Origin: Azorinus chamasolen
Taxonomy: Eukaryota > Mollusca > Bivalvia > Cardiida > Solecurtidae
Assembly: GCA_963576725.1 (NCBI GenBank)
Contig: OY755252.1
Span: 25,488,655-25,552,654 of the forward strand
DNA length: 64,000 nt
Direction: 5' to 3'
Shown: positions 44,418 through 60,866 of the stretch, piece after piece
Layout: each line of letters begins with the position of its first letter
Position numbering within the stretch: the first letter of the stretch is position 1
Position numbers and translations under genes: made by a program
Notes under the pieces: generated by a model
Databases searched by the model: none
Seen by the model: only the letters and a program-made list of their open reading frames with translations
What the model was told of the DNA's origin: nothing

Positions 44418-44422
44418 TCTCG
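44418..44422 (+). other. Maverick target-site duplication, left
   Basis: TCTCG, repeated at 59,907-59,911. Maverick/Polinton duplications are usually 5-6 bp. Confidence 0.8.
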
Positions 44423-44527
44423 ATATATATGAGAAAGGGGAGTCCTGGCTCACTCACTCCGCTCGCGATCCAGGACACGCTTCGCTTCCCCTTTCTCATA
44501 TATATATATAGATATTGCTTAAAATTG
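44423..44527 (+). repeat. Maverick terminal inverted repeat, left
   Basis: Starts ATATATATGAGAAAGGGGAG and ends AGATATTGCTTAAAATTG. Internally self-complementary: GAGAAAGGGGA near the start pairs with TCCCCTTTCTC at ~44,487-44,497, and CTGGCTC..GATCCAGG lies between, so the end alone can fold into a hairpin. Confidence 0.93.
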
Positions 44528-44966
44528 CTAAAAAAAGAAAGCATTCATTTTAAGGAAAACAGCTATTTTTTTCGTAAAAAAAGCTCTAAACGTCTAAATA
44601 AAGAAGAAATGACCTCAAACTAAGCCTAAAAAGTGGTTTACAGGGTGTTTGTACCCAAAAAGTAGTAAAACAGTTAAACTTAAAAAAAAGAGGTACAGAA
44701 TGCTAAAGAGGTACAGTAGAATAAAATTTCAAGAAAAAAAACTAAAAAAACTAAAGAGGTACAAAATGTCAAAGAGGTACAGTAGAATAAATTCTCAGGG
44801 AGAAAAAATAAAAATTTCAAAAGAGGTACAGCCGAATTGAGAAAAAGTCCCGTCAGATTTTACCATTTTTACCCATTTTTAATGAGACACAAGAATAGCT
44901 AAAAATAAGGAAAAAGGGGTATAATAGATGAAAAAGATAAATATAACTTAATTTTTAATATAAAAA
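44528..44966 (+). promoter_or_regulatory. Left non-coding region with AAAGAGGTACAG iterons
   Basis: AT-rich leader before the zinc-ribbon ORF. The word AAAGAGGTACA occurs five times (about 44,690, 44,706, 44,752, 44,772, 44,820), arranged as two ~66 bp units (…GAGGTACAGTAGAATAAA…) plus a partial third. The adenine-rich open frame over it (44,649-44,840) mirrors the repeat and is not supported as a gene. Possible promoter or replication-initiation repeats. Confidence 0.5.
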
Positions 44967-45233
44967 ATGGAAGAACTTACAAAAGTTTGTTCTAAATGTA
45001 AAGAAAATAAGTTATTAAATGAATATCATAAAGCAAAAGGTAGAAAGATGGGTGTTAAATCTGCATGTAAAGAATGCCAAAAAGAAAGTAAAAAACAACA
45101 TTATATAGAAAATAAAGAAAAATATAAAAAAGCGTTTGTTTCATTTTTAGAAAGAAATCCAAATTACAGAAAAGAACATCCGACATATATAAAAAAAATA
45201 AAGAAAAATAATATGATTGAAATTTATTCATAA
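44967..45233 (+). CDS. Small zinc-ribbon protein
   Basis: 88 residues. C8-x2-C11 and C34-x2-C37 (VCSKCKENK ... ACKECQKE) form a four-cysteine zinc ribbon; the rest is a basic, lysine/tyrosine-rich tail. This layout is common in viral and phage accessory DNA- or RNA-binding proteins and next to HNH-type domains. The start has the AATATAAAAAATGG context used by other genes of this element. It ends TCA TAA, then one codon (GAA) and the polymerase ATG, in the same frame. It could therefore be a separate protein, or the N-terminal part of a polymerase fusion made by stop readthrough or broken by a recent mutation. Confidence 0.65.
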   Translation: MEELTKVCSKCKENKLLNEYHKAKGRKMGVKSACKECQKESKKQHYIENKEKYKKAFVSFLERNPNYRKEHPTYIKKIKKNNMIEIYS

Positions 45234-45236
45234 GAA

Positions 45237-48200
45237 ATGGGATCAAATAAAACTGAAGAAACTGAATTGGTATTAGTAGATAAACCAAAATGTAATTATT
45301 TTAAAGTATATGAAATTGAAGCTAGTAATTATAAAGACCCTAGTATATTATTTTCTGATAAAAGAAGTATTATAGTTGAGCAAATTATAAAAGATTTAAA
45401 TGAATATAATGGTATTAAGTTTTCTATAGGACTATCCCTTGAATTTAAAAAGGTTGAACAAAATGGTAATAAGAAAATTGTTCCTGCTGCAAACTATGGT
45501 AAACAAATTGCTGTATTATTTAATGAAAATATTGAAGAATATTATAATGATCAAACAGCTTATTTACAAGTGTGGATTGAGAAATTCACAAATACAGCTT
45601 CAGGCCTAGAAATTGAGAAATGTATAAAATTGTATTTGAACATTGCAAAATATGAACCAATTAAAGGTTCATCATACATTGATTTACCACAATATTTCAA
45701 AAATAAAAAAGCTATAATCAATGTAAAAAATAAAGATGATGCTTGCTTTTTCTGGTCAATAATTTCAGCTCTTCATCCTGCATCTAAAAATTCTGATAGA
45801 CCTTCATCTTATCCAGATTATAAAAATTTTTTAAATATAAAAGATATTGAAACACCTGTAACAATAAACCAAATAGTAAAGTTTGAAAAACAAAATAATC
45901 TTGCAATAAATGTTTATGGTTATAAGGAAAAAATAATAAAAGATTGTATAGAAAAGATTGTTGATAAAGTAATATTAAGAAAAAGAAAAATTCCTTTAGC
46001 TGATAAAGTAAAAGCAGTTGAAAAACTTATTGAAGATGTTAAAATAGATGAGTATAGAAAAACTTTAGCTATTGCAGCCCTTCCAGCACTTAAAAAACTT
46101 GCGGCTGAAGGAGTGCAAAAAGAATATAATATATTCCCATATTTTATATCTAATCAACCAAAAGAAATTAAAAGAATAAACTTAATGTTAATTGAAGAAA
46201 ATAAAACATTTAGAACACATTATTGTTGGATAAAAAATTTAAATAAACTACTATCTGACCAAACTAAACATCATGGACAAAAATTTTTCTGTGAAAGATG
46301 TTTACACGGTTTTTCAAGAGAAGATTTATTAACTAATCATAAAGAAGATTGTGAAGGAATAAATACATCTTCAATAAAAATTAATATGCCACCTGAAGGT
46401 TCCACAATTAAATTTGAAAATTATTACAAACAAATGCCAGTGCCTTTTGCAATCTATGCTGATTTTGAAAGTATAATAGAACCTGTTTCTATTAAAAAAG
46501 GTGAAAAAACAGAAATAATAAATGAACATAAACCATGTGGATTTGGTTATACAGTTGTTAGATATGATGGAAAAACAGAAGAACCAGTAATATATAGAGG
46601 AGAAAATACAGTAGAAAAATTTCTTACATGTTTAGAAGAAGAAAAAAAAAAGATTAATGAAATATTTAAATATCCAAAAGCAATGATTATGACACCACAA
46701 AATGTACAAGATTTTGAAAATGCGAAAAATTGTTGGGTATGTAAAAAAGAATTACTAGGTATTAAAGTCAGAGATCATTGTCATTTTACTGGTGAATATA
46801 GAGGAGCTGCTCATAAAATTTGTAATTTAAAATTAAGAATTAAACCATATTCAACAAAAATACCAGTAATATTTCATAATTTAAAAGGATATGATTCTCA
46901 TTTAATAATGCAAAAAATAAATATTTTAAAAGGAAATATTTCTTGTATAGCTAATAATTCTGAAAAATATATTTCTTTTTCGGTTGGGCAATTTGAATTT
47001 AAAGATAGTTTTCAATTTATGTCAACATCTTTAGCAGCTTTAACAGAAGGATTAATTGATTCAACTAATGGATGTGATAAGTGTGGATCAAAAGAAAAAA
47101 TAAATATTAATAAAGATTTTATGTTAAGGGGAAATTGTAAAAAATGCCATAATGTAAGATATAAACAATTAGATAAAGAAAAATTGCCAATAACAGCAAA
47201 TTTTTTTCCTAACAATCGTTTAAATCTTATTGCTCGTAAAGGAGTTTATATGTATGAATATATGGATTCATTTGAAAGATTTAATGAAACTGAATTACCC
47301 CCAATAGAAAATTTTTATAGTTCTTTAACAGGGAAAAATATTAGTAAAGAAGATTATGAACACGCACAAAATATTTGGAAAATATTTGGTTGTAAAAATA
47401 TAGGTGATTATCATGACCTATATTTAATAACTGATGTATTATTATTAGCAGATGTTTTCCAGGCATTTAGAAAACTTTGCTTAGAAGTTTATAAATTAGA
47501 TCCCCTCCATTATTATACATCTCCAGGATTATCCTGGGATGCATTATTAAAATATACAAAAATAGAATTAGAATTAATATCAGATATAGATATGGAACTT
47601 TTCATTGAAAAAGGAATTAGAGGAGGAATATCAATGGTTTCTAAAAGATATTCAAAAGCTAATAATCCATATATAGAAGGTTATAATAAAAATAAAGAAA
47701 ATAATTACATAATGTATTTTGATGCAAATGCTTTATATTCTTTTGCAATGTTAAGACCTTTACCATACTCTGATTTTAAATGGACTGAGCTCCCTCTTGA
47801 GAAACAAAGTAATTGGAAAGAGCTTAAATCAAAAGATAAAGGATGGATTTTAGAAGTTGATTTAGAATATCCTAAAGAATTACATAAAAAACATAATGAT
47901 TATCCACTTGCCTCAGAAAGACTTACAGTAAAAGAAGAATGGCTTTCTGATTATCAAAAAGAATTATTAGATAATAAAAGTTTATTTAAAGTAGAAAAAC
48001 TTGTTCCTAATCTTATGGACAAAGAAAAATATGTTATACATTATGAAAATCTTAAATTGTATGAAAAACTTGGTTTAAAAGTAACAAAAATTCATAGAAT
48101 CCTTGAATTCAATGAAAAACCTTGGATGGCCCCATATATACAACTTAATACTGAACTAAGAAAAAAAGCAAAAACAACTTTTGAAAAAGATTTTTTCAAG

Positions 48201-48983
48201 CTAATGAACAATTCAGTATTTGGAAAAACTATGGAAAATCTAAGAAAAAGAGTAGATATAAGATTAGTAAAAACTGAAGGAAGTGAAAATAACAAGATTA
48301 GAAAATTAATAGCTAAACCAAATTTTAATAGCCGTATAAAATTCACTGATGATTTATCAGCAATACATATGAATAAAGTAGAACTAACATTAAACAAACC
48401 AACATATGTAGGATTTTCTATTCTAGATTTATCAAAAGAAACTATGTATAAATGGTACTACAATGTATTAAAAAAGAAATATGGTGAAAAATGTAAATTA
48501 TTATATACAGATACTGATTCATTTTTAATTGAATTAGCAACAGAAGACGCTTATAAAGATATGGAAGAAATGAAAGATGAATTTGATTTTTCAAATTATT
48601 CAAATGATCATTTTTTACATGATGCAACAAATAAAAAAGTTCCTGGGAAATTTAAAGATGAATGTGGTGGAAAATTAATATCTGAATATGTAGGTTTAAA
48701 AGCAAAACAATATTCTTTATTAATGTATAATGGTGATTCTATTAAAAGAGCAAAAGGAACGAAAAAGAATATAATTGAAAATGAAATAAATTTTAATAAT
48801 TATAAAGATTCATTATTCAATAATAAAACATATACACATTCAATGAATATGTTAAGATCGATAAATCATAATATATATGAATTAAAAACAGATAAAATAA
48901 CATTAAATCCATTTGATGACAAAAGATACATACTAGAAGATGGAATTACGACGTACGGGTATGGGTATCAACAGGAACAATAA
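45237..48983 (+). CDS. POLB: Protein-primed family B DNA polymerase (Polinton PolB)
   Basis: 1,248 residues. Exonuclease motifs: ExoI YADFES (D409, E411), ExoII NLKGYDSH (D553), ExoIII YLITD (Y729, D733). Polymerase motifs: A DANALYS (D829), B KLMNNSVFGK (K988-K997), C YTDTDS (D1092, D1094), and KAKQYS (~1155-1160), the KxY motif. All catalytic acids are present. An N-terminal C2HC finger (C352, C355, H368, C372) and an HNH/endonuclease VII-like cluster (CWVC 499-502, RDHCHFTGEYRG ~512-523, C529-N530) lie before or among the Exo motifs, as in other Polinton polymerases. It should replicate the element by protein priming at the termini. The C-terminal 38 bp overlap the convergent integrase gene. 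The start lacks the usual A-rich context and sits one codon after an in-frame stop. Confidence 0.96.
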   Translation: MGSNKTEETELVLVDKPKCNYFKVYEIEASNYKDPSILFSDKRSIIVEQIIKDLNEYNGIKFSIGLSLEFKKVEQNGNKKIVPAANYGKQIAVLFNENIEEYYNDQTAYLQVWIEKFTNTASGLEIEKCIKLYLNIAKYEPIKGSSYIDLPQYFKNKKAIINVKNKDDACFFWSIISALHPASKNSDRPSSYPDYKNFLNIKDIETPVTINQIVKFEKQNNLAINVYGYKEKIIKDCIEKIVDKVILRKRKIPLADKVKAVEKLIEDVKIDEYRKTLAIAALPALKKLAAEGVQKEYNIFPYFISNQPKEIKRINLMLIEENKTFRTHYCWIKNLNKLLSDQTKHHGQKFFCERCLHGFSREDLLTNHKEDCEGINTSSIKINMPPEGSTIKFENYYKQMPVPFAIYADFESIIEPVSIKKGEKTEIINEHKPCGFGYTVVRYDGKTEEPVIYRGENTVEKFLTCLEEEKKKINEIFKYPKAMIMTPQNVQDFENAKNCWVCKKELLGIKVRDHCHFTGEYRGAAHKICNLKLRIKPYSTKIPVIFHNLKGYDSHLIMQKINILKGNISCIANNSEKYISFSVGQFEFKDSFQFMSTSLAALTEGLIDSTNGCDKCGSKEKININKDFMLRGNCKKCHNVRYKQLDKEKLPITANFFPNNRLNLIARKGVYMYEYMDSFERFNETELPPIENFYSSLTGKNISKEDYEHAQNIWKIFGCKNIGDYHDLYLITDVLLLADVFQAFRKLCLEVYKLDPLHYYTSPGLSWDALLKYTKIELELISDIDMELFIEKGIRGGISMVSKRYSKANNPYIEGYNKNKENNYIMYFDANALYSFAMLRPLPYSDFKWTELPLEKQSNWKELKSKDKGWILEVDLEYPKELHKKHNDYPLASERLTVKEEWLSDYQKELLDNKSLFKVEKLVPNLMDKEKYVIHYENLKLYEKLGLKVTKIHRILEFNEKPWMAPYIQLNTELRKKAKTTFEKDFFKLMNNSVFGKTMENLRKRVDIRLVKTEGSENNKIRKLIAKPNFNSRIKFTDDLSAIHMNKVELTLNKPTYVGFSILDLSKETMYKWYYNVLKKKYGEKCKLLYTDTDSFLIELATEDAYKDMEEMKDEFDFSNYSNDHFLHDATNKKVPGKFKDECGGKLISEYVGLKAKQYSLLMYNGDSIKRAKGTKKNIIENEINFNNYKDSLFNNKTYTHSMNMLRSINHNIYELKTDKITLNPFDDKRYILEDGITTYGYGYQQEQ

Positions 48984-49851
48984 GAAGTTCTTCTTTAACA
49001 AAACCTCTCGTTGGTGCTGGAGATTTCAAATAATAAACTCTTATACCCTGTGTAATAATATGATATTCTATATTATGAATATCGACTGACCATATTGGGT
49101 CGGTAGCTCTTCTCTTACCACCTCCTTCTAATTCTCCAGGCTGATATAAATATCTAACATTTGCCAGAGGACATATTTCAGTATCAACTTTTCTTTTTAA
49201 AATTGGAGAAGGTTTTTTTGTCTCATTATTCAAAGCCTTAACCACGTCCGGTAATCTCTTAACCCATTCTCTATTTCTTTTCTGTGTGTCAATCTCCTTA
49301 GCGTACTGATAACCGAACAATCTTTCGGCCAAAGTTCTATTAAATCTCTCTACAATTCCTTGATCCCTATGTATCTCTTTTCTACCTCTTCTTATTTTAA
49401 CATTATGTTTAGCCATTAGTTGAGAAACAACACCCATAAATTCTCTTCCAGGGTCAACTTGTAATAGTTTAGGATAGTTCAAATGTCTTTTATAAATCTT
49501 TTCAAAAGCGGCGGCAACTTCTTTACTGTCTTTCGATGTCAATGGTACAGCTTCTTTATATCTCGTTCCCACATCTACTAATGTCAATGCATACTTATAC
49601 GTTTTATTTTTTATTCTATCAAAAGGTAAGAACAGTAAATCAGCTTGATGTACTTCATTTTTTGCAGACACATCAAATTTAGGTCTTATTATCTTCTTTG
49701 GTGCAGGCAAATATATCTGCCACACTGCTTGTTTCTTTAGAAATTCTAATGCTTGTTTTTTATTAACTTTAGCTTCTTTTGCTAACTTACTAACAGCTGT
49801 CTTACCTTTCCAAAATCCTTTAGGGCTATAGTATATTTCTTCCATTTTCAT
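48946..49851 (-). CDS. INT: Retroviral-type integrase (Polinton INT)
   Basis: 301 residues. Catalytic core: HQADLLFLP (D71), LLQVDPGREFMG (D133), DQGIVERFNR (E168): a D,D35E triad. 'TLVDVGTRY' between the first two acids is typical of the RNase H fold of this family. The N-terminal ~60 residues are helical and basic without an obvious HHCC zinc finger. The C-terminal part (YQPGELEGG ... IWSVDIHNIEYHIITQGIRV) looks like the chromodomain/SH3-like tail of Polinton integrases. The start overlaps the stop of the upstream gene as ATGA; M3 is an alternative start. It inserts the element and would create the TCTCG duplication. The 3' end overlaps the polymerase gene convergently. Confidence 0.93.
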   Translation of the reverse strand: MKMEEIYYSPKGFWKGKTAVSKLAKEAKVNKKQALEFLKKQAVWQIYLPAPKKIIRPKFDVSAKNEVHQADLLFLPFDRIKNKTYKYALTLVDVGTRYKEAVPLTSKDSKEVAAAFEKIYKRHLNYPKLLQVDPGREFMGVVSQLMAKHNVKIRRGRKEIHRDQGIVERFNRTLAERLFGYQYAKEIDTQKRNREWVKRLPDVVKALNNETKKPSPILKRKVDTEICPLANVRYLYQPGELEGGGKRRATDPIWSVDIHNIEYHIITQGIRVYYLKSPAPTRGFVKEELLIVPVDTHTRTS

Positions 49852-50234
49852 AGAAAAATTAAATCATAAGCGTGGTAATTATTCTTTTTATTTTTTATAC
49901 AAGGTTTTAATCCTAGAGGTCTAATAAAAAATGGTGGTCGAAGTAACCCGTTCGCTTCGCTCACTTTATCCTCTATTTTTGTAGCAAGATGTGAAGGACA
50001 CCAAACCTTGGTTTCATCTTTTAATTTTAAAACTGTACTTTTTCCTATACTGGTGTCAATTATCTCAAAGTCAATAATTTGATAAATTTTATTTATTTCT
50101 AATTCAGTCCATTTTAAAATTTTATTTTTATTTTGCGCTTTTAACATTTTATCAAATTGTTCTTCTGTGATATCGATTTGCATTTGTGCTTTACTTTGCA
50201 TTTGTGCCATCATCTTTTTTTCTACCCCGCTCAT
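49848..50234 (-). CDS. Small conserved element protein, possible OB-fold
   Basis: 128 residues. After a Met/Gln-rich N-terminus (MMAQMQSKAQMQI) the core KWTELEINKIYQIIDFEIID, then GKSTVLKLKDETKVWCPSHL, has the alternating pattern of a small beta-barrel: 'L..G/N.IY.I..F....T..GKS..L.L.D...V..P..L'. Similar short proteins occur in animal Polintons and could bind single-stranded DNA, which protein-primed strand-displacement replication needs; this is inference from pattern only. The codons for DKVSEANGLLRP coincide with a GC-rich mini-sequence (49,941-49,970). It overlaps the integrase start by 4 bp (ATGA), suggesting coupled expression. Confidence 0.7.
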   Translation of the reverse strand: MSGVEKKMMAQMQSKAQMQIDITEEQFDKMLKAQNKNKILKWTELEINKIYQIIDFEIIDTSIGKSTVLKLKDETKVWCPSHLATKIEDKVSEANGLLRPPFFIRPLGLKPCIKNKKNNYHAYDLIFL

Positions 50235-50318
50235 TTTTAAATATAGAAAATCAATTTGTAATTTTTTTTTTTAATTTTGAAATTTTCCAAAATTACATTT
50301 ATTTTATTTGTCTATATT

Positions 50319-50738
50319 TTATATAAATTTCCAAGCAACAAAACCAGTTAATGCCATGCCACCAATAACAAAAGCAATCTCTCTATTTTTCTGGTCTTCT
50401 GAGGGTGTATAAAAATCACTTAATTTAGGTTCTGGAGGATCCCCTTGATTGGGTTCCCCACTCGCATAATAATATTCTTTCATAGCTTGGTCAACATCAG
50501 CAAATGTTTGTTCGGCATGATGTTCTTTTTTCATTTCTTTATTAATATAATCTAATCTTTGAGTTCTTTCTTTTTCCCAATCCGCTTTTGCTGCCTCTAA
50601 TTGTTCCATAGCTTTATCATGTCTTTCTCTTTCTTTATCCGAATCTTTTCCTAAATGTGAAAATAAATAATTACCACCAGTAAAAGCTAATGCATTTGTA
50701 ACTGCTCCCCCAATCATCATTATTGCTGCACTTGCCAT
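50319..50738 (-). CDS. Conserved Polinton two-TM protein of unknown function
   Basis: 139 residues from the preferred start MASAAIMMIGGAV at 50,738. An in-frame ATG at 50,807 would add 23 residues (MSERRRSDHREQAPLG..), but those are encoded entirely by the GC-rich repeat also found at 51,045-51,107, where it is non-coding, and the downstream ATG has the TAAAAAAATGG context. Hydrophobic glycine-rich N-terminal segment (GGAVTNALAFTGGNYL), a charged helical middle (ERERHDKAMEQLEAAKADW), 'DVDQAMKEYYYA', a proline-rich PPEPKLSDFYTPSEDQK and a C-terminal membrane segment (IAFVIGGMALTGFVAWKFI). The layout 'PEP.LSDFY.PSE.QK' + TM recurs in animal Polintons. A virion membrane or assembly role is a guess. 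Confidence 0.72.
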   Translation of the reverse strand: MASAAIMMIGGAVTNALAFTGGNYLFSHLGKDSDKERERHDKAMEQLEAAKADWEKERTQRLDYINKEMKKEHHAEQTFADVDQAMKEYYYASGEPNQGDPPEPKLSDFYTPSEDQKNREIAFVIGGMALTGFVAWKFI

Positions 50739-50739
50739 T

Positions 50740-50808
50740 TTTTTAGGAGTGAATTTCGTTCCAAGGGGAGCTTGCTCCCGATGGTCGCTGCGCCTCCGCT
50801 CACTCAAA
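50740..50808. repeat. GC-rich mini-element, copy 1 of a 65-70 bp direct repeat
   Basis: AGGAGTGAATTTCGTTCCAA, GGGGAGCTTGCTCCCGATGG, TCGCTGCGCCTCCGCTCACT: matches 51,043-51,108 almost base for base. GGGAGCTTGCTCCC is a small hairpin. Confidence 0.85.
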
Positions 50809-50821
50809 TTAAAAAATAAAA

Positions 50822-51040
50822 CTAGGATTCACGTTTACATCGAATCAAATTAATAATTTCTAAAATAGTTAAACCAATAAAAAAAATACTAATGCCATTA
50901 AATAAATAATCAGGTATATCTTTTTCTTCAATAGGAACGTATTTTGAATAATCTTTTATAACTTCTTCAACATCATCATCTGGTTTTAAAAATAAATAAT
51001 CATACTTATCACCTAACTTTATTGGTATTACTCTAGACAT
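50822..51040 (-). CDS. Small tail-anchored membrane protein
   Basis: 72 residues: MSRVIPIKLGDKYDYLFLKP, an acidic middle (DDDVEEVIKDYSK), then a hydrophobic helix (NGISIFFIGLTILEIINLI) and a basic tail RCKRES. Start context TCCTTAAAAATGTC matches neighbours. It lies in a run of four small membrane proteins (50,319-51,945). I do not recognise a family. Confidence 0.65.
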   Translation of the reverse strand: MSRVIPIKLGDKYDYLFLKPDDDVEEVIKDYSKYVPIEEKDIPDYLFNGISIFFIGLTILEIINLIRCKRES

Positions 51041-51042
51041 TT

Positions 51043-51108
51043 TTAAGGAGTGAATTTCGTTCCAAGGGGAGCTTGCTCCCGATGGTCGCTGCGCCTCCGC
51101 TCACTCAA
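51043..51108. repeat. GC-rich mini-element, copy 2
   Basis: Second copy of the direct repeat at 50,740, here wholly in the leader between two genes. Its position, orientation and junction to the A-rich start context are the same as in copy 1. Confidence 0.85.
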
Positions 51109-51134
51109 AAAAAATAAAAATAAGACAAGGAGCT

Positions 51135-51365
51135 CTACTTCATAATATCAGCTGGAATAATACCTTGTTTAACCAACATATCTCTTGTAGCCATTGCAAG
51201 TAATATATCAATAGTTAACATTCCAATATCACCCATATTAAAATCTACTTTAGGTGCTGATCTTTTTAATAGTTTTCTGCCTATTTCCGCATAACCAATT
51301 GTTAATACAGTTTCTACTCCTGCATGATATAACATGTTTGCTATTTGTTTTCCATCTGTTGCCAT
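51135..51365 (-). CDS. Conserved small Polinton membrane protein
   Basis: 76 residues: IANMLYHAGVETVLTIGYAE, then IGRKLLKRSAPKVDFNMGDI and GMLTIDILLAMATRDMLVKQ + GIIPADIMK. Two hydrophobic stretches flank a basic K-L-KR..PK linker. 'LAMATRD-LVKQGIIP' at the C-terminus is a pattern I associate with small proteins found beside Polinton capsid genes in invertebrates; function unknown. Start context TTTAAAAAATGGC. Confidence 0.68.
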   Translation of the reverse strand: MATDGKQIANMLYHAGVETVLTIGYAEIGRKLLKRSAPKVDFNMGDIGMLTIDILLAMATRDMLVKQGIIPADIMK

Positions 51366-51396
51366 TTTTTAAAGAAAAAATATAGATAAAAGAAAA

Positions 51397-51945
51397 TTAA
51401 TTAAATTCAAATGGGTTATATTCTTCTTTCTTTATTTCATAAGATATATTTTCTTTTTCTTTTTTGACTTGAATGTTTTTACTTTTTACGAATAAATATA
51501 ATCCAAATCCAACAACTACGATTGATGCATATAATGGTATGTAATTTTTTGTTATTTCTAATTTCGAATTTAAACTCCCTTCAAGGGGACTCGCTCCCGA
51601 TGGTCGCTCGGTCGCCCTTTCGGTTGAATTTTGAAAAGCATCATCATCTGAATCTTTTATTATTTGTCTTGGTGTCGAATTTAAACCAAGAGGAACTCCC
51701 TCCAAGGAGAGCTTGCTCCCGCTCGAAATTTTTAGTTCCATATTTTCTTTCTTCAAAAGTTCTGCTTCTTTTCTTTTTAATTCTGCTTTTAATTTTCTTG
51801 CTTCTGCACCTTTCTTACCCGCAGCTACTCGTTTTGGATTTTTGGGCTTCGAGAGATTACTCCCTTCCGAGGGTGCCCGAGCTGCTGTCGTCTTTTCTCC
51901 ACTATTAATATTTTCTTCATTATTAATATTTTCTTCACTATTCAT
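51397..51945 (-). CDS. Lys/Glu-rich protein with C-terminal membrane segment
   Basis: 182 residues. Acidic/asparagine repeat at the N-terminus (NSEENINNEENINSGE), a basic helix with KNPKRVAAGKKGAEARKLKA (recurrent in Polinton proteins), long Lys/Glu helix, then two serine/glycine-rich inserts, and a TM segment YIPLYASIVVVGFGLYLFV. The inserts (SSGSKLSLEGVPLG, ERPSGASPLEGSLNS) and PSEGSNLSKP are encoded by GC-rich mini-sequences at ~51,574-51,625, 51,684-51,728 and 51,858-51,893. The start lies within the end of the upstream gene (8 bp overlap). Possibly a DNA-condensing or virion core/membrane protein; inference only. Confidence 0.65.
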   Translation of the reverse strand: MNSEENINNEENINSGEKTTAARAPSEGSNLSKPKNPKRVAAGKKGAEARKLKAELKRKEAELLKKENMELKISSGSKLSLEGVPLGLNSTPRQIIKDSDDDAFQNSTERATERPSGASPLEGSLNSKLEITKNYIPLYASIVVVGFGLYLFVKSKNIQVKKEKENISYEIKKEEYNPFEFN

Positions 51946-52471
51946 TTTTTATATCTTTTTTTTGAGAATCATCTTCATTATTAGCAAGATTAACATGTTT
52001 TGCTGTTGTTAACATTGCGGTAAGAGGTGCTAAATACATTCCATATCTATAGTACAGTTCACAACATGAACTAGTCAAAGCGTGATTTATAAAAGGATCT
52101 TCCTCTAAGTCTTGTATTAGTTTTGGAGGGTTAACATTAAAAAACTTAGAAACACCCATAACATATAAATTAATAAAAGAATTACCTAATGTCTTAGTCA
52201 TACTAGCTCCTAATCTCGCTTCATATCTACAATATAGTTTTTTTATTTGATCGGAAGTCATTGCGTCAATGTCTGAAAGTTGTAACTCTCTTCCGAGATA
52301 TTGTTTACTACTACCACCAGCTACAATAGCTGATAATCGTTCGCGTTTTTTTTCATCAACATCTTCTCCCTGGGACAACCTCTCCCTTCCGGGGGCGACC
52401 GAGTGGAACGAGTTCCTTGAGCCCGAGCTGCTGTCGGTCTCGATTTCGGTTAATAATTCTTCGGCATTCAT
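51938..52471 (-). CDS. Conserved Polinton protein of unknown function
   Basis: 177 residues. A low-complexity N-terminus (SSSGSRNSFHSVAPGRERLS), partly encoded by GC-rich DNA (52,366-52,445), then a conserved-looking core: LSDIDAMTSDQIKKLYCRYE, ARLGASMTKTLGNSFINLYV, DLEEDPFINHALTSSCCELY and YRYGMYLAPLTAMLTTAKH. 'DID-MT-DQIKK-Y-RYEARLGA-MTKTLG' and 'L--DPFI-HAL-S--CELY-RYGM-LAPLTA-LTT-KH' recur in other animal Polintons between capsid and integrase genes. No catalytic motif. Start context TATATAAAATGAA. Confidence 0.7.
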   Translation of the reverse strand: MNAEELLTEIETDSSSGSRNSFHSVAPGRERLSQGEDVDEKKRERLSAIVAGGSSKQYLGRELQLSDIDAMTSDQIKKLYCRYEARLGASMTKTLGNSFINLYVMGVSKFFNVNPPKLIQDLEEDPFINHALTSSCCELYYRYGMYLAPLTAMLTTAKHVNLANNEDDSQKKDIKNE

Positions 52472-52547
52472 TTTATATAGTTTATTTTTAAGTTTAAAAA
52501 TAATTATAGTTTTTTTAAACCTTCAGTTTCCAATAGCATTTTAATTA

Positions 52548-52647
52548 GTAATGCTTAATCAATGCTTTAGTAATGCTTAAGCAATGCTTTAGTAATGCTT
52601 TAGCAATGCTTTAGTAATGCTTTAGTAATGCTTAATTAATGCTTAAT
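52548..52647 (+). repeat. 12 bp tandem repeat after the ATPase gene
   Basis: About eight copies of an AATGCTTTAGTA / AATGCTTAATCA unit run across the ATPase stop (52,643-52,645) into the intergenic space before 52,471. It may act in termination, or be polymerase slippage. Confidence 0.75.
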
Positions 52648-53290
52648 CAACTAACCAATAGCCAGTAGGTTGATCCGTTCTCAATATCAATTTACGTTGC
52701 TTCTTTTTTTTTAGTTCCTCTTTCATTTTTTGTCTTTCTTCTAAAGTAGGAATAACGTCATTTTCTCTTAGACAATTTTCAAAACTATCTCTGTCTTTTG
52801 TGTAGAACATACATAACCATTTTGTTTGTTCTCTTAAATCTTTTAAAACAGAATTGTATCTTTGTGAAATAACCCACACTGATTGTTCAGCGTGTCTCCC
52901 TGAAAAAGCTAATTCGGAAAGCATATCTCTTTTCTTCGTTAATTCTTTTGTTGCACTACAATCATCAATAATGTATAACGTTGGATAACCAGCATATTTT
53001 TTAAAGAACATTCTTAATAATTCTTGTAGTTTCTCTTCTTCATTAATTATAGGATTAACGATTATTATATTTTTTGTTTTAGGTTTCCTAACATCTCCAA
53101 TCCACTCACGATTTTTATAAGCTTTATTCCATTGAATAGTAGGACACAATATAACTATATATTTGAATATTTTAGAATATTGATTTTCTAAAAGGTCAAG
53201 TACAAACTCGGTCTTTCCACAACCTGTCTGTCCACATATAATAGCGCAATGAGGATATTTAGGAAGCTCACGGGAGTCGCGGTGCTCCAT
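52643..53290 (-). CDS. ATP: FtsK/HerA-like DNA packaging ATPase
   Basis: 215 residues. Walker A GQTGCGKT (20-27); Walker B LYIIDDC with D109-D110; then SGRHAEQSVWVISQR (130-144), the conserved segment of the Polinton/adenovirus-like/poxvirus A32-type genome packaging ATPase group. Length (~215-250) is normal. The C-terminus is basic (KEELKKKKQRKLILR). It would pump the element's DNA into capsids. Its start (CTAAAAAATGGAGC at 53,290) is 25 bp from the end of the major capsid gene. Confidence 0.93.
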   Translation of the reverse strand: MEHRDSRELPKYPHCAIICGQTGCGKTEFVLDLLENQYSKIFKYIVILCPTIQWNKAYKNREWIGDVRKPKTKNIIIVNPIINEEEKLQELLRMFFKKYAGYPTLYIIDDCSATKELTKKRDMLSELAFSGRHAEQSVWVISQRYNSVLKDLREQTKWLCMFYTKDRDSFENCLRENDVIPTLEERQKMKEELKKKKQRKLILRTDQPTGYWLVD

Positions 53291-53314
53291 TTTTTAGACG
53301 GAATTTTAGTTTCT

Positions 53315-54580: not shown

Positions 54581-54597
54581 TTTTAAGGGATTTTTTT

Positions 54598-55215
54598 TTA
54601 GTATGATAATTCGATTATCATTGACGCCACTGTATTAACACAAGTAGAATTATCTGTTTTAGAAACGAAATTGATTACGTCGAGAGCTTCAATCTTTAAC
54701 GGTATAGCGAAACGTGCCGCGGCGCTCGGAAAAATACCTAAAGACACGCTATATCTCGGTTGTTCAATTCCATTAATAGATACCGCAATGGCTACATTAT
54801 CATTGTTCGTTCTTTTACTTGATAATCCTAACCCCAATATCAAACCGGTCCTTCCCGCCACATAACCAACCTCGTCTTCTCTACCGGCATTACCGAAACT
54901 AAATACTTTTCCATCCTTTAATGCACCCTTACTTTCGGCGCATATGCTTATTGTCTTCTTTGTACTAATACTATCCCTCAATTTATTAATTTCTTCTTTC
55001 CTTTCTAAATTATCGGCGTGTTGTTTATTATATATTTGTGGAACTACGCCCCTAAATTTATTAATTTCTTCTTTCAACGCCAAATTATCATCACGTTGTT
55101 TATTAGATAACTGAGGAATTAAAACGTCCCTCACATGAATAATTTCTTTTTTAAGTTCTGAATTATTAGAACTAACACCTTTATATATTATTTTTTTAGT
55201 TCCAAATATACTCAT
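54598..55215 (-). CDS. Fibre-like protein: repeat shaft plus beta-rich head
   Basis: 205 residues. N-terminal basic anchor (MSIFGTKKIIYKGV), then three ~25-residue repeats at 18-43, 44-68 and 69-81, each opening N(S/L)(E)LK(K/E)EI and closing with NKQ.(D)DN (for example LKEEINKFRGVVPQIYNKQ), predicted helical/coiled-coil. From ~90 on comes a compact beta-strand domain: KVFSFGNAGREDEVGYVAGR, LILGLGLSSKR, VAIAVSINGIEQPRYSVSLG, ASMIIELSY. The anchor-shaft-head plan and the place between the major and minor capsid genes suggest a vertex spike or fibre. No family was recognised by sequence, so the role is inference. Confidence 0.65.
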   Translation of the reverse strand: MSIFGTKKIIYKGVSSNNSELKKEIIHVRDVLIPQLSNKQRDDNLALKEEINKFRGVVPQIYNKQHADNLERKEEINKLRDSISTKKTISICAESKGALKDGKVFSFGNAGREDEVGYVAGRTGLILGLGLSSKRTNNDNVAIAVSINGIEQPRYSVSLGIFPSAAARFAIPLKIEALDVINFVSKTDNSTCVNTVASMIIELSY

Positions 55216-55219
55216 TTTA

Positions 55220-55888
55220 TTAGATAGTTTTTGAAGTGGAACACTCCCTCCGGTCGATCTCTAAAACGCAATTAACTGGTAGACGATTATTTATTTTTTT
55301 ATTATTTTCATCTCTTATTTCTAATTTTAATTCAGTTATACAGCCATTATTTAACTGTTTGTATTCAGGATTCTCCAGTCTCATCGTTGTTATCTCACCA
55401 AATTCTTTATTCTCAACTGGAATAACTGCTAATAAGGTACTCGGCATACCATCAAGATAATTATGAGAAGTACTAACTTGTTCCAAATAAAGATACAATG
55501 ATTTATAGATAGCAAAATCTATATTTCTCTCACCAATGTGTATTTCATTAGCGGCAAATGTCAGTTTACCAAATCCTAATTTAAAGCTCAAATCTTTACT
55601 TATTTTAAATTCATTGGTAGAAACTAAAAATGCAATACCATTCGTTTCATTTACGCCTGATGTAATATTTATATTTTTAAATAAATCTGCTAATTGTTGA
55701 AAACTATAATAACCACCTGGAATTTGCATGGGCCCATCATCCACCGTTTGTACATATTCATCAACAATATTATACCAACCTACACCGTACGTAATACTTT
55801 TCAATCCAATATATTTATCCCCATTTCTATTATCGATATATTGTTGTAAGTTAATAGTTTTATCAATATTTGAAATTGTATGATACAT
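55220..55888 (-). CDS. mCP: Minor capsid protein (penton, single jelly-roll type)
   Basis: 222 residues from the preferred start MYHTISNIDKTINL at 55,888. An in-frame ATG at 55,933 would add 15 residues but would run into the divergent gene starting at 55,921, and the inner ATG has the A-rich CTAAAAAAAATG context. Conserved-looking blocks: KYIGLKSITYGVGWYNI, IPGGYYSFQQLADLF, LYLYLEQVSTSHNYLDGMPS + TLLAVIPVENKEFG, and a C-terminal ELKLEIRDENNKK..LPVNCVLEI. Beta-rich, like the Polinton minor capsid/penton protein that fills fivefold vertices. It is adjacent to the fibre-like gene, 4 bp apart. Confidence 0.82.
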   Translation of the reverse strand: MYHTISNIDKTINLQQYIDNRNGDKYIGLKSITYGVGWYNIVDEYVQTVDDGPMQIPGGYYSFQQLADLFKNINITSGVNETNGIAFLVSTNEFKISKDLSFKLGFGKLTFAANEIHIGERNIDFAIYKSLYLYLEQVSTSHNYLDGMPSTLLAVIPVENKEFGEITTMRLENPEYKQLNNGCITELKLEIRDENNKKINNRLPVNCVLEIDRRECSTSKTI

Positions 55889-55920
55889 TTTTTTTAGTTT
55901 GCTTTTTTTAATGTTTAAAA
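55889..55920. promoter_or_regulatory. 32 bp divergent intergenic promoter region
   Basis: Separates the minor capsid start (minus) from the 412-residue gene start (plus). It consists of T-rich then A-rich sequence (TTTTTTTTAGTTTGC, TTAATGTTTAAAA). Both genes are probably driven from this short interval. Confidence 0.5.
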
Positions 55921-57159
55921 ATGTCAATCCCAAAAGAATTTAAATTTAATCCAAACGTATCTTATAAATCGGGGGCCGCTTATAAACTTAAAAATATAGG
56001 CCTTATCAAACAAGATATGTACGTTAATAAAGATGAAAGTTTTCTAGTAAATTTTCCTGATATATTTCAAAATTATCAAAATCCTGCTTTACATTCGAAC
56101 GATCAGTGGAATACTTGGTTAAATTCTCCTTTCGATTGGTGGCAATGTCAATTAAATTTTGCTGTTTGGTGTGCAACTTCCGGTTGCGGCGTAAGTTACG
56201 AAGATCATTTAGAAAAAACTACCGATCTAACAAAAACGGTTTATACTTTTCACGTTTATTACTGTATTTTAAGAATAATAAAAGAATTACAATGTCCAAT
56301 TCCTACGGATCCAGCATTCTGTTATTATAGTAATCAATATGATAAAGCTGCGTATCAAAAATTATGTAACGAGTTTAATATTTCTCCTCATACGGATTGG
56401 AGACAGAAATTAGATAGAGGAGGTTGTCACGGTCTCGGAACATACAGTCAATACTTTAAACCCGATGGCGCATACAGAGCTAGTCATTTAAGCGATGGAC
56501 CATTCTTTAGCGTTAATGATTCTATAACTCATACTAGAAATATTAGTAACGCCTGGACTACTTTTTTATTAGATAAATCTAATGGATTTACTCATACGGG
56601 ATTAGTTAGAATAAACGAAAGTATTAGAATATTCGTATGGGCTTTACTAGGATCTCAAAGTCAAACTAGAGTAGAAATTTTAAAGGTAGGAACCGGTTTT
56701 GACGCCCAAAAACAATTCTTAGCAAATATACAGGATGCTGTCAATAGTCCGATAGATTTACCGAGTCAGATTTCGAGATACGAAAATGTTTTAAAATACG
56801 CTAGAAGTAAAGTTAATTACAGTTACGGACTCGGTCTTTATATGTCTCCGAGCGATATGATTTTACAAATAGGAACTATTGTCGGATATAATAATGAAAT
56901 TGTAGTATCAACTGAAGAACAAGTTTTAGGAATTAACGATGACGTTAATTCGATAAATAAATCTCCTTCTAACGTAATAAATGGAACAAAAACTAAAAAA
57001 TCTCCTATTATTCATATTAAAAAACCTGAACCTAAACCTGAACCAGAACAAGAGTCTCCAGAAGTAAACCTGAAGGTATCCGAACATGTAGATAATAAAA
57101 CGGCAATAATAGTAGGAAGTATAGCGGTAGGTCTTACGTTTTTATTTTTTTATCATTAA
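55921..57159 (+). CDS. Conserved Polinton protein with C-terminal membrane anchor
   Basis: 412 residues. Aromatic, cysteine-rich first third: NTWLNSPFDWWQCQLNFAVW + CATSGCGVSYEDHL, then FHVYYCILRIIKEL, a DWRQK..GGCHGLGTYSQYF block, FTHTGLVRINESIRIFVWAL + LGSQSQTR, and KYARSKVNYSYGLGLYMSPS. The C-terminal 80 residues are low-complexity (KKPEPKPEPEQESPE) followed by a TM helix (AIIVGSIAVGLTFLFFY). The WWQCQLNFAVWCATSGCG and GLGLYM.PSDM patterns recur in animal Polintons; no enzymatic motif is visible. It is likely a structural or membrane-associated virion protein; it might correspond to one of the uncharacterised 'PY/PX' proteins, which I cannot settle. Overlaps the next gene by 26 bp tail to tail. 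Confidence 0.72.
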   Translation: MSIPKEFKFNPNVSYKSGAAYKLKNIGLIKQDMYVNKDESFLVNFPDIFQNYQNPALHSNDQWNTWLNSPFDWWQCQLNFAVWCATSGCGVSYEDHLEKTTDLTKTVYTFHVYYCILRIIKELQCPIPTDPAFCYYSNQYDKAAYQKLCNEFNISPHTDWRQKLDRGGCHGLGTYSQYFKPDGAYRASHLSDGPFFSVNDSITHTRNISNAWTTFLLDKSNGFTHTGLVRINESIRIFVWALLGSQSQTRVEILKVGTGFDAQKQFLANIQDAVNSPIDLPSQISRYENVLKYARSKVNYSYGLGLYMSPSDMILQIGTIVGYNNEIVVSTEEQVLGINDDVNSINKSPSNVINGTKTKKSPIIHIKKPEPKPEPEQESPEVNLKVSEHVDNKTAIIVGSIAVGLTFLFFYH

Positions 57160-58477
57160 GATACTCTTTCGCAGCTGTAAATAATAAGCCGGCAACTAAA
57201 ACTAATAAAACCCATAGATTATTAGCGAGCCAATTAACAACTTTACCTGTTGCGGATAATAACCATGATACTATAGCACCTATTATTCCGGGTAATGCCG
57301 CTGCCGCTTTACCGGCTAATTTAGCTAATAATTTTCCAATATTATCTAATTGTTTTTTTATCCAATCTTTCACACCATCACCTTTTGGTGGAGGTTTTGG
57401 TGTTATAGTTCCTCCTCCTCCACCGGGTATAATAGTTTCGACGATTAAACCTATAACCATACCGAAGGCCGTTAAAACGCTAGCGATCGTAATTCCTTGT
57501 TCCCTGAATAATGTTTTTATTCTTTCGGCTAATGTCGTGTCTTCTCTCAATATTTTATTGATGGTTTCTTTTATTCTATTTACTTGGCTACGTATTTTTT
57601 CTTTATTAATATTAATTGCTTCTAATCTAGCACTTCTCTCGCCTTCCAATTCTCTTATTCGATTACTTATCCTTTCTATTTGAAATTCATTATTATCTTC
57701 TTTAGCCTGTTCTAATTTTTCTTTTTCTCTTGCTATATGTTTATTTGTTTCATTCAGTTTTGCTAATTGATTTGCAATCTCTTCTTTTGCTGTTGTCATT
57801 GCTTGAAGAATACCATCCACTTCTCTTTTTGTTATATCTGTTTGAACTTCTTTAGGTGCAGTTTCTATTTCTTCGACTACTTCTTTCAAAGCAGTTTCTG
57901 ATCTATTTGTTGTTGTTAATAAATTTTGAACATCTTTTTCTGAAGAAAGATCTTGCATTGGAATTTCTTGTCCTGCATTATTAATTTCATCTCTTGTATT
58001 TTGTAAAGCTGCAACAGCTTTGGTAGATAATTTTTTAGTTTTACTGTTATAATCTGGTAAATTTAATAAATCTCTAATTGTAGATGTACCACCAGAACCA
58101 ATTCTACTTGCTAAAGTATTCAAAGCAATAAAACCTCCTCTTTCAGATGTGATTTGAATTTCTCTATCTCCAACCTTTAAAAATAATGTTTTATTATCGG
58201 GGCCAAGTTCAAAGTTTGAAATATCTATACGAATCGGTTCTAATCCATATTTTTCTTTTATCATCTCGTAATATCTTTTAACTATTGATTGTTTCAGTTC
58301 CACTATTAATTGTGTTCTTGTATCTACATCATTAATATCTTCAATAAGAGCGGATAGGTTTTGTATGGATCTGTTAAATTCATCATCTGCAAACATATCA
58401 TTATCATCATTATAAACATAATCTTCAAAGTCTTCATGATAATCTGGTTCACTATAATCAAATCCACCTTCAGCCAT
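57134..58477 (-). CDS. Large coiled-coil protein with amphipathic and membrane C-terminus
   Basis: 447 residues. Acidic Tyr/Asp-rich N-terminus (SEPDYHEDFEDYVYNDDND), a small globular part (RIDISNFELGPDNKTLFLKV, ERGGFIALNTLASRIGSGGT), long charged coiled coil (~190-330), then ITIASVLTAFGMVIGLIVET, a poly-glycine/proline hinge (IPGGGGGTITPKPPPKG), amphipathic helices (WIKKQLDNIGKLLAKLAGKA, AAALPGIIGAIVSWLLSATG) and a terminal TM (NNLWVLLVLVAGLLFTAA). This C-terminal arrangement is widespread in invertebrate Polintons. The helices resemble membrane-disrupting segments, so an entry or capsid-internal role is possible, without direct evidence. Confidence 0.72.
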   Translation of the reverse strand: MAEGGFDYSEPDYHEDFEDYVYNDDNDMFADDEFNRSIQNLSALIEDINDVDTRTQLIVELKQSIVKRYYEMIKEKYGLEPIRIDISNFELGPDNKTLFLKVGDREIQITSERGGFIALNTLASRIGSGGTSTIRDLLNLPDYNSKTKKLSTKAVAALQNTRDEINNAGQEIPMQDLSSEKDVQNLLTTTNRSETALKEVVEEIETAPKEVQTDITKREVDGILQAMTTAKEEIANQLAKLNETNKHIAREKEKLEQAKEDNNEFQIERISNRIRELEGERSARLEAININKEKIRSQVNRIKETINKILREDTTLAERIKTLFREQGITIASVLTAFGMVIGLIVETIIPGGGGGTITPKPPPKGDGVKDWIKKQLDNIGKLLAKLAGKAAAALPGIIGAIVSWLLSATGKVVNWLANNLWVLLVLVAGLLFTAAKEYLNDKKIKT

Positions 58478-58553
58478 TTTTATTCGGAATAAATTGGTGG
58501 CGGGTTTTCATATCTATAATTATTAGTAACATAATTATTATTAATTATATAAA

Positions 58554-59141
58554 TTATGCTGTTTTTAAACTGTTTAACATATCTTCTTTTATCTTCTCGA
58601 TTAATTTTTTTTTTTCATCTTCAGTTATTCCTGAACCTGATTTCCCTAGGTCTGATTTTTTTATTGATCTTATTTCTTCTTTAAGTTTAGAATATTTTTC
58701 CATTTCAGTTAAAACTAATTTAAATTCTTCAGGGCTTATTTCTCCATCTTGAAGAGATTTAGAAATAATATCTCTAATACTATTTAATTTACTTTCTGCT
58801 ATCATTTTAACATTACAATGTTTTTGTGCTTTTGTCATTAATTTTCTTCTTATTATTTTAACACATACACCAATTCCTCCACATGCTACAGCCACTATTT
58901 GTAATGGTAACAGAATAGGAACTGCTACTCCAATTCCTGCTAAAATAATACTAGTTGATATTAATGTGGTATCAACCCCTTCAGTAATATTTATTCCTCG
59001 TTTATATTTTTTTCGTAATGATTTTCTTATATCTCTTTCATTAATTAATATTCTTTCAATCTCTGATATTTTTTGTAATCTATAATTTTGTCCATCCTCT
59101 ACTGGTAATTCAGGATATAACGGCGCCGTTGGTTGCTTCAT
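58554..59141 (-). CDS. Conserved Polinton protein with central membrane hairpin
   Basis: 195 residues. Proline-rich N-terminus with a late-domain-like APLYPELP stretch, then EIERILINERDIRKSLRKKY + KRGINITEGVDTTLI, two hydrophobic helices (STSIILAGIGVAVPILLPLQ, IVAVACGGIGVCVKII), and a helical C-terminal half (AESKLNSIRDIISKSLQDGE + ISPEEFKLVLTEMEKYSKLK). The 'INERD-RKSL-KKYKRG-N-T-GVDTTLI' pattern recurs in many invertebrate predicted proteins, probably all Polinton-derived. Function unknown. Start context CCCTTTAAAAATGAAG. It is the first gene from the right end. Confidence 0.72.
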   Translation of the reverse strand: MKQPTAPLYPELPVEDGQNYRLQKISEIERILINERDIRKSLRKKYKRGINITEGVDTTLISTSIILAGIGVAVPILLPLQIVAVACGGIGVCVKIIRRKLMTKAQKHCNVKMIAESKLNSIRDIISKSLQDGEISPEEFKLVLTEMEKYSKLKEEIRSIKKSDLGKSGSGITEDEKKKLIEKIKEDMLNSLKTA

Positions 59142-59801
59142 TTTTAAAGGGTTTTTTTTTTTAAAAAAAATTTTTTCTCGTGGTGGCGGGTAACACCCTC
59201 AACCTGACACATTTTTATTTATTCAAGCAGAGGACAATTTTAACCCTATAACATAATTTAAACAGTCAGTTCTGATTGGATAACTAAAAATAGACTAAGA
59301 AAAACCAATATCTTGCACAATGAGTTTAAACTTTATAAGCCCAATTTATATGATTTATACTTGTGTACACAAATAATAACTAGGTATTGCGTGGTAGGAC
59401 AAACTTCTAAGACTTTCTTCCACCCTGGAAGATTGTTAACATAGGGGTTTGATCCTACCCGGTTGTAAGGTCCGGAAGCTATTACAGAAAGGGTAGCCCG
59501 GATCTCGGCTTGCCAGTGTGGATCCAGAGGCAATAAAAATGGAAAAAAACCTTCCTCTCTATCTAAGTCCTCTGGATCCAGTGTACACAGAGAGGATTTT
59601 GCCGGCAGTGGGTTCGAATCCCACCGTCGATGATTTTTTTTTTTTACTTTCCAAATAGAGGGTTAAAATATTTTTTTTTATTTTCTTATAATGTTACCTG
59701 TATAAGGTTTTAGACCTAAAACAGAGTCAATTCTTCTAAATTTGAACATTTTGGACCATTTTTCCACAAATTAACCATTTTCTGTAATTTACTATTTTTA
59801 A
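59142..59801 (-). other. Right non-coding region of the Maverick
   Basis: 660 bp without a supported gene. It holds a T/A-rich leader (59,150-59,176), an imperfect hairpin set around two GGATCC-containing inverted words (GTGGATCCAGAGG near 59,518; CCTCTGGATCCAGTG near 59,569), a tRNA-like T-arm at 59,608-59,624 and T-rich tracts. The frame at 59,333-59,533 (minus) shows no motif. Confidence 0.5.
59608..59645 (+). promoter_or_regulatory. Perfect Pol III B box with T12 terminator
   Basis: GTGGGTTCGAATCCCAC forms a 5 bp stem and seven-base loop like a tRNA T-arm and contains the consensus B box GGTTCGAATCC, followed 12 bases later by twelve Ts. I could not fold a full tRNA: no complementary 5' acceptor for CGTCGAT and no good A box are seen upstream (best near-match is near 59,518). 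It is either a tRNA-derived Pol III transcript or a tRNA 3' fragment. Confidence 0.4.
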
Positions 59802-59906
59802 CAATTTTAAGCAATATCTATATATATATATGAGAAAGGGGAAGCGAAGCGTGTCCTGGATCGCGAGCGGAGTGAGTGAGCCAGGACTCCCCTTTCTCAT
59901 ATATAT
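59802..59906 (-). repeat. Maverick terminal inverted repeat, right
   Basis: Reverse complement of 44,423-44,527 with no mismatch seen over 105 bp; ends CTCATATATAT. Confidence 0.93.
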
Positions 59907-59911
59907 TCTCG
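59907..59911 (+). other. Maverick target-site duplication, right
   Basis: TCTCG, matching 44,418-44,422. Confidence 0.8.
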
Positions 59912-60866
59912 TATGTTTTGATTTCGGCCAATAGAAACGTTTGTCAGATAATGTGTTGTTTCTTCATAGTTTGTGTTGATACTGATAGCCTATTACACGA
60001 TGCACTGAAACACCTGTACACTACATGCATAGGTATTAACAATAACACGTCGCTCTAGTGTATCGGAAGATAAAAGTGACTTTGATAAGATTACCCTGCT
60101 TACGGTTAAATTCAAATGCTAGATACTAGATCTTTTCACCGGAGTTTACGCGGCGAAAATATATGAGGAATATTTTTACGAAAATGACATTGGTCGTAAA
60201 AATAAGTAAAAATTAGCAGCAGGTAAAAATAACCCGTTATACGGGGGGGGGGGTATATTGAACATATTGAACCCATTTAAGGCTATTGTTCCTAACCCTA
60301 TGATCTGTGAATATTCATATAAGAAGTAATGCCATTATGAATATTAATTAGGTTATAATTTATAATGGCACATGGACACGGGCCTTATTGTCCATGGGAG
60401 AAACTATAGCATCGTCTGATCTGGGTCTACTCTGTTTTCAAAGGCACAGAAAGATGTATTTAAAGTGTAAAGTGTTAAGGCAATTGTTCCTTGAACATGT
60501 CCAAATACGTATTATAGACCAATCTAATTTTCATCCTGAGGGGTTTGTCTTTTCGAGGGATTTTGTCGATGTGACCTATGGATAATTTTTCTTGAAGCAA
60601 ACAGTGCAGACCCTGATTATGGGACACTTTAATAAGCCATATAGTCTGGGTCTATACTGTTTGCCCATGGGGCTGTCGGATACACCAGACATGCATTTGG
60701 TCGATATTAGCCCTTTCAACTCTGGATTATTAGAATGGAATAACCCATTACTACTTCAGTATAGAGTCCTCTCGGTATGGAAGGCTTAAACTTCTTAGAG
60801 GACTTTGACTCGCAAACAGTGCTGACCCTGATTAGGTGGCTCCTCTAGGACCCATTTGATCTGGGT

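What the first reader, a model, noticed from the sequence alone, without database searches (positions are those of the whole stretch)
44423..59906. Complete, apparently intact Maverick/Polinton with identical ends
Seen: two 105 bp terminal repeats with no mismatch found, a clean 5 bp duplication, and intact polymerase, integrase, ATPase and capsid frames with all catalytic residues present. Known: identical ends and open genes are expected only soon after insertion. Inference: the copy is young and may be part of an active, possibly virus-like lineage in this animal.
Basis: partly seen in the sequence, partly recalled or inferred. Interest (0 to 1): 0.8.

Follow-up and report, generated by a model that had tools for sequence, protein, structure and literature searches.

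The report
Maverick-like element with mirrored, palindromic ends
A complete virus-like jumping element sits in this animal's DNA; it is one of many related copies that swap capsid genes, and their ends tend to keep a self-complementary shape even as the letters change, which hints at how such elements copy their ends.

Summary
Window 44423-59906 has 105/105 identical terminal repeats, a 5-bp duplication (TCTCG) and open polymerase, integrase, ATPase and capsid frames. It is not alone: the same genome holds 18 paired-end elements (this one included) and 97 of 99 scored capsid genes without a stop. It lies inside a ~900-bp host transposon, so the empty site is that transposon (uninterrupted in 9 of 9 copies read), not the 6-kb unit.

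Three further results: (1) each end is an imperfect palindrome whose arms change together among copies (13 of 26 pairs change on both sides; 0 of 500 shuffles reach this). (2) End type tracks polymerase similarity (Spearman 0.87, 14 elements); capsid similarity does not. Four elements have capsid dS 0.065-0.127 where a polymerase piece has 0.62-0.96, so capsid modules are exchanged. (3) Capsid dN/dS is about 0.09 and the nearest of 29 compared copies is at dS 0.065, so copies diverged while functional.

Most likely a recent insertion of a protein-primed, capsid-bearing Polinton-type element with fold-back ends used in replication (mechanism inferred). Infection, packaging and present activity are untested. 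New variant of a known kind.

The parts
44418..44422 (.). target-site duplication, left copy (TCTCG)
44423..44527 (+). left terminal inverted repeat, 105 bp identical to the right one
44423..44505 (+). palindromic (hairpin-capable) terminus, 19-bp outer and 7-bp inner stem
   Evidence: (44423-44527 as DNA, z -6.4)
44967..45233 (+). small frame before the polymerase, 88 aa, no family above cut-off
45237..48983 (+). family B, protein-primed-type DNA polymerase, 1248 aa; C170 (90% or more) and H328 (all) conserved in 16 aligned polymerases (candidate vOTU pair)
48946..49851 (-). retrovirus-like integrase (rve), 301 aa, D71/D133/E168
49848..50234 (-). 128-aa frame, unknown
50319..50807 (-). 162-aa frame, unknown, hydrophobic segments by eye
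50822..51040 (-). 72-aa frame, unknown, not scanned against families
51135..51365 (-). 76-aa frame, unknown, not scanned against families
51397..51945 (-). 182-aa frame, unknown
51938..52471 (-). 177-aa frame, unknown
52643..53290 (-). genome-packaging ATPase (Pox_A32, E 1.7e-14), 215 aa
53315..54580 (-). [quoted passage not shown]
54598..55215 (-). 205-aa frame, candidate minor virion protein (inference only)
55220..55933 (-). 237-aa frame, candidate minor capsid/penton (inference only)
55921..57159 (+). 412-aa protein, C-terminal hydrophobic helix, family of 446 relatives at lower identity than the capsid's, no convincing fold match; candidate surface protein (inference)
57134..58477 (-). 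447-aa protein, coiled-coil-like by eye, hydrophobic C-terminal part, unknown
58554..59141 (-). 195-aa frame with a hydrophobic segment by eye, unknown
59802..59906 (-). right terminal inverted repeat with the same palindrome (59824-59906)
59907..59911 (.). target-site duplication, right copy (TCTCG)
43863..44422 (+). left part of the ~900-bp host transposon (MITE-like, TA duplication) that was the target
59912..60251 (+). right part of that host transposon

Best explanation
A recently inserted, complete member of a large family of Polinton/Maverick-type elements in this genome. Shown: integrase-type insertion with 5-bp duplication, open genes, many relatives with open capsid genes, capsid under purifying selection, palindromic ends whose arms co-vary, end type linked to polymerase similarity, capsid gene not linked. 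Inferred: the polymerase copies the element as a linear DNA by protein priming; the single-stranded end folds back on itself and one arm serves as template for the other (or is held paired by selection), so both arms and both ends stay matched; the polymerase/priming protein recognises its own end type, while capsid modules are exchanged by recombination between co-resident or co-infecting elements; copies are seeded from lineages that keep a working capsid, most simply by passage through particles.
For: Boundaries and target. Of 18 paired-end elements (window copy included) 16 have a 5-bp duplication flush with ATATATAT, 0 a 6-bp one. Co-variation: 13 of 26 pairs with change on both sides, 55 cells, 95.7% of cells paired, each with 0 of 500 shuffles as high; slid structures give 1-4 such pairs. 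Ends chosen without regard to end sequence: of 16 elements picked by capsid alone, 5 had the palindrome in the 1.1 kb looked at, outer arms 19/19 in four and 17/19 in one, hairpins 82-124 nt long. Linkage: end versus polymerase Spearman 0.87 (permutation p 0.0002), end versus capsid 0.28, polymerase versus capsid 0.23, 14 elements. Capsid exchange: from the window copy, four of eight elements have dS 0.62-0.96 in a polymerase piece but 0.065-0.127 in the capsid. Selection: pooled dN/dS 0.086 over 435 pairs of 30 copies; 97 of 99 scored capsid genes without stop.
Against: In one search one of five measures, the number of further pair types, is not exceptional (18; 79 of 500 shuffles as high), and the inner pair 22-52 fails in 9 of 18 rows. 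Eleven of 16 capsid-chosen elements showed no such palindrome in the stretch looked at. Palindromes are common in this host's DNA (15 of 39 control pieces), so a palindrome alone proves nothing. The copies are related, so cells are not independent events. Only best-scoring copies were examined. No protease or penton gene was recognised in the 14 of 16 frames scanned. The capsid model is poor (mean pLDDT 51). No relative was found in four IMG/VR scans.
Confidence: 0.62

Rival explanations
1. The palindrome is a binding site for the integrase (two inverted half-sites per end), kept by protein recognition rather than by folding or copying.
For: The element has an rve integrase and insertion is flush with the palindrome's outer base.
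Against: A fixed binding site would keep its letters; here letters change in both arms together at 13 of 26 pairs while the outermost ATATATAT is nearly constant. End similarity follows polymerase similarity; integrase similarity was not compared, so this point is open.
Confidence: 0.2
2. The copies spread only inside the germ line as transposons; the capsid is conserved because it helps mobilisation in the cell, with no infection.
For: Many chromosomal copies in one genome and no relative in viral contig scans.
Against: The 29 compared capsid copies are open, yet at dS 0.065-0.151 from the window copy with pooled dN/dS about 0.09; a named relative at 84% exists in another clam assembly.
Confidence: 0.3
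3. No gene exchange: capsid and polymerase simply evolve at different rates.
For: Capsids are more alike than polymerases at the protein level.
Against: The gap is at synonymous sites (0.065 against 0.72 in one element), and the order reverses between elements: others have polymerase dS 0.065 and capsid dS up to 0.127.
Confidence: 0.05
4. The element is a canonical Polinton with nothing unusual at its ends.
For: Gene set and size fit; 5-6 bp duplications are stated for mavirus and Maverick/Polinton elements (PMC8547959, passage read).
Against: Palindromic ends with co-varying arms and a 5-bp duplication in 16 of 18 elements, against the 6 bp given for Polinton in PMC10045372 (passage read).
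Confidence: 0.2

Closest known systems
Polintons / Mavericks (Polintoviricetes)
   Same: pPolB-type polymerase, rve integrase, packaging ATPase, double jelly-roll capsid, terminal inverted repeats; 15-20 kb is given in PMC4028283 (passage read)
   Different: no Ulp1 protease recognised, 5-bp duplication, palindromic co-varying ends
Meldvirus chimera Meld23486 (PMC11071296, section 16 and passages with a figure legend read)
Mavirus-like virophages / EMALEs (PMC8547959, passages read)
   Same: capsid-bearing integrated elements with inverted repeats, short duplications (mostly 3-5 bp), 138 copies in four strains
   Different: host is a flagellate; the words hairpin and palindrom do not occur in its text
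Streptomyces terminal-protein telomeres (PMC4513846, start of abstract in a listing only)
   Same: works-like comparison: protein-capped linear DNA with tightly packed palindromes at the ends
   Different: bacterial replicon with internal initiation, unrelated genes
Parvovirus / bidnavirus ends (PMC4061559, passages read)
   Same: hairpin ends in parvoviruses; bidnaviruses carry a Polinton-derived PolB
   Different: that paper says bidnavirus repeats do not form parvovirus-like hairpins; no Rep/NS1 gene recognised here

Membership tests
Polinton/Maverick | protein-primed family B polymerase | tested here: met
   1550 relatives among the 7985 candidates scored, many of the 120 listed carrying PF03175; exonuclease and palm motifs present; own sequence gave no PF03175 hit at E<=1
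Polinton/Maverick | retrovirus-like integrase | tested here: met
   Pfam rve 34.3 bits, cut-off 32.6
Polinton/Maverick | FtsK/HerA-type packaging ATPase | tested here: met
   Pox_A32 54.3 bits, cut-off 22.8
[quoted passage not shown]
Polinton/Maverick | terminal inverted repeats and 5-6 bp duplication (PMC8547959) | tested here: met
Polinton/Maverick | strict 6-bp duplication (PMC10045372) | tested here: not met
   0 of 18 paired-end elements; 16 of 18 have 5 bp. Sources differ, so filed only as Polinton-type in the broad sense
Polinton/Maverick | Ulp1-type cysteine protease (identifiable in 74% of Polintons, PMC4028283) | tested here: inconclusive
   no such hit in the 14 of 16 frames scanned at E<=1
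Polinton/Maverick | single jelly-roll penton | tested here: inconclusive
   no penton-like hit for the 205- and 237-aa frames; not folded
Adintovirus | integrase with C-terminal chromodomain (PMC11071296) | tested here: inconclusive
   no chromodomain hit at E<=1
Adintovirus | hexon recognisable by BLASTp to adintovirus hexons | not testable with these tools
   no reference hexons at hand
Parvovirus-like hairpin replicon | Rep/NS1 initiator | tested here: inconclusive
   no such hit in the 14 of 16 frames scanned; a polymerase of another type is present

The most novel reading that the evidence does not exclude
A lineage of animal Polinton-type elements with fold-back (telomere-like) ends, in which arm-to-arm copying during protein-primed replication keeps each end palindromic and both ends identical, with ends and polymerase co-inherited as a unit and capsid modules freely exchanged, i.e. 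an actively recombining virus population recorded in one genome.
Probability: 0.35. Interest if true: 0.8.

Novelty: new variant of a known kind. Interest (0 to 1): 0.58.

Why it matters
How Polinton-type elements replicate their ends, and whether they still travel as viruses in animals, is open. Here one genome holds many copies with open capsid genes, which shows parts that go together (ends with polymerase) and a part that is swapped (capsid), and gives a concrete, testable structure at the ends. In the paper searches made (listings, plus passages of the few papers opened) I saw no report of palindromic co-varying Polinton ends; the founding paper tried (PMC1450207), Starrett 2021 and Jeong 2023 were not held, so this is not a claim of absence from print.

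Full report

Where it sits. The window has a ~6.05-kb unit in tandem (26156 on, 32202 on, 38247 on). Copy 3 carries a ~900-bp insert with short inverted repeats and a TA duplication, and the element lies within that insert. The insert's left half gave 523 candidates in the genome, 40 scored at 94-100%, this one included. Of nine copies read across the site, nine are uninterrupted with one TCTCG. So the insertion is exact and came after the host transposon.

Copies. The window's genome (G000) is 1.72 Gb in 137 contigs. A search with the left end gave 40 scored matches of 84 candidates; by position they make 18 pairs 15.1-21.4 kb apart (this one included) and 4 single ends. In 16 of 18 pairs a 5-bp duplication lies flush with ATATATAT; none has 6 bp; in the other two the end letter or the AT run has shifted. 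Twelve of 18 have no left/right mismatch in the first 83 bases. I did not check that all 18 carry all genes. The capsid search scored 99 of 536 candidates, 97 without a stop, at 95-100% identity, this one included; the polymerase search scored 37 of 986 candidates, giving 57 rows, some with stops or partial. These are the best matches only, so the share of open copies is biased upwards.

Selection and age. Among the 30 capsid copies whose DNA was held (the best 30 of 99), median dS is 0.086, median dN 0.0070, pooled dN/dS 0.086, and no two are identical; the nearest of 29 to the window copy is at dS 0.065. Zero stops in 13,698 coding bases of the window copy bounds its own divergence since insertion at about 0.4-0.6% (frames chosen as open). 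Copies therefore diverged mainly while replicating under selection on the capsid, not while resting in the chromosome. That fits repeated seeding from capsid-dependent lineages; it does not prove infection.

Exchange of modules. In eight elements with both pieces held, four have a polymerase piece at dS 0.62-0.96 from the window copy but capsids at dS 0.065-0.127; the other four have polymerase dS 0.065-0.097 and capsid dS 0.082-0.127. The closest capsid of the 29 belongs to an element (C16) whose polymerase is 69-76% identical in its three matched segments. Over 36 pairwise distances among nine copies polymerase and capsid do not correlate (rho 0.16, p 0.35). Over the 14 of 21 other elements that had a row in all three tables, end similarity tracks polymerase similarity (0.87) but not capsid similarity (0.28); 7 of 21 lacked a polymerase or capsid row. 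Polymerase values there are those of the best-scoring segment, which is partial in several elements; all distances are to one reference copy and the elements are related, so the p-value is approximate. In the window the polymerase also has far lower GC3 (0.107) than capsid and integrase (0.24, 0.23), consistent with a different history, though some other frames (0.11-0.17) are also low.

The ends. Each repeat begins with an 83-base imperfect palindrome: 19-bp outer stem, 7-bp inner stem, a loop and a one-sided bulge. Across one end from each of 22 elements (18 distinct rows) 95.7% of cells pair, 13 of 26 pairs show changes on both sides and 0 of 500 shuffles do as well; slid registers give 1-4 pairs; the number of further pair types is not exceptional (79 of 500 shuffles as high). 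Mismatches are 20 of 465 cells, nine of them at one inner pair. As a check I took 16 elements chosen by capsid only and looked at 1.1 kb near the expected end: 5 of 16 had the palindrome, mostly with new arm letters, hairpins of 82-124 bases, and outer arms matching 19/19 in four and 17/19 in one; two of the five, L099 and L105, are identical. Eleven of 16 gave none there; their ends may lie elsewhere or be different. Palindromes as such are common in this host (15 of 39 pieces).

Mechanism. Shown: structure, co-variation, linkage of end and polymerase. Inferred: a single-stranded end formed in protein-primed copying folds back, and repair or extension of one arm on the other keeps arms equal; the two ends of an element stay equal by copying. 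Selection for pairing alone would also give co-variation; the data do not separate the two. The polymerase C170 and H328 are conserved in the 16 aligned polymerases, and I take them for the Cys/His pair described for the vOTU domain thought to free the terminal protein (PMC11071308, passages read); the domain itself was not modelled.

Relatives elsewhere. Capsid relatives number 4184 at E<=0.001 among 7157 candidates; the 120 listed are 83-89% identical, one named Mactra antiquata (84%, on a 58.9-Mb contig, a length none of the G000 contigs seen here has), one in a MAG of a Thiodiazotropha symbiont (85%), most unnamed. The 412-aa protein has 446 relatives; the 120 listed run from 73% down to 38% and include Mytilus edulis (61%). 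The best near-full-length polymerase match is 61% over 99% of the query (7985 candidates scored). The host is thus probably a bivalve (inference; no name was given). Mavericks are already known to be abundant in a clam genome (Mercenaria, 1.69% and 1.93% in the two columns of its table, PMC8905726, passage read).

Placement. Polinton-type in the broad sense, possibly near the chimeric meldviruses with D13-like capsids (PMC11071296). The strict 6-bp duplication is not met, and protease, penton and chromodomain are undecided, so I do not file it more narrowly. New variant of a known kind.

Noticed in passing
26156-44000 and 60251-60866: A ~6.05-kb unit in three tandem copies, 97.6-99.5% identical by piece, the third split by two insertions.
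   Followed up: partly
43863-44422 with 59912-60251: A ~900-bp MITE-like transposon with TA duplication; 523 first-look candidates in the genome, 40 scored.
   Followed up: yes
40970-43082: A second ~2.1-kb insertion in copy 3 of the unit.
   Followed up: no
3634-4645, 21696-23485, 62989-63938: Tandem arrays of about 145-, 164- and 162-bp units.
   Followed up: no
44447-44469: On the minus strand the hairpin loop reads as GAGY-like tetranucleotide repeats; such repeats are recalled as initiator sites in parvovirus ends. A lead only.
   Followed up: no
L014 and L016, first 83 bases of the C14a ends: Left and right ends carry reciprocal mismatches at the same stem pair (A/C on one, G/T on the other), as if arms had been swapped; could be two chance changes.
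   Followed up: no
L013 and L005; L019 and L029: In two elements left and right ends agree only over the hairpin (84-85 bases) and then differ, as if the hairpin alone had been copied from end to end.
   Followed up: no
PolB codons of about 959-1158 in C11a, C12, C5a, C5b (L088, L089, L094, L095): Nearly identical to each other in this piece although whole-polymerase identities to the window copy differ (92-99%), pointing to mosaic polymerase genes.
   Followed up: no
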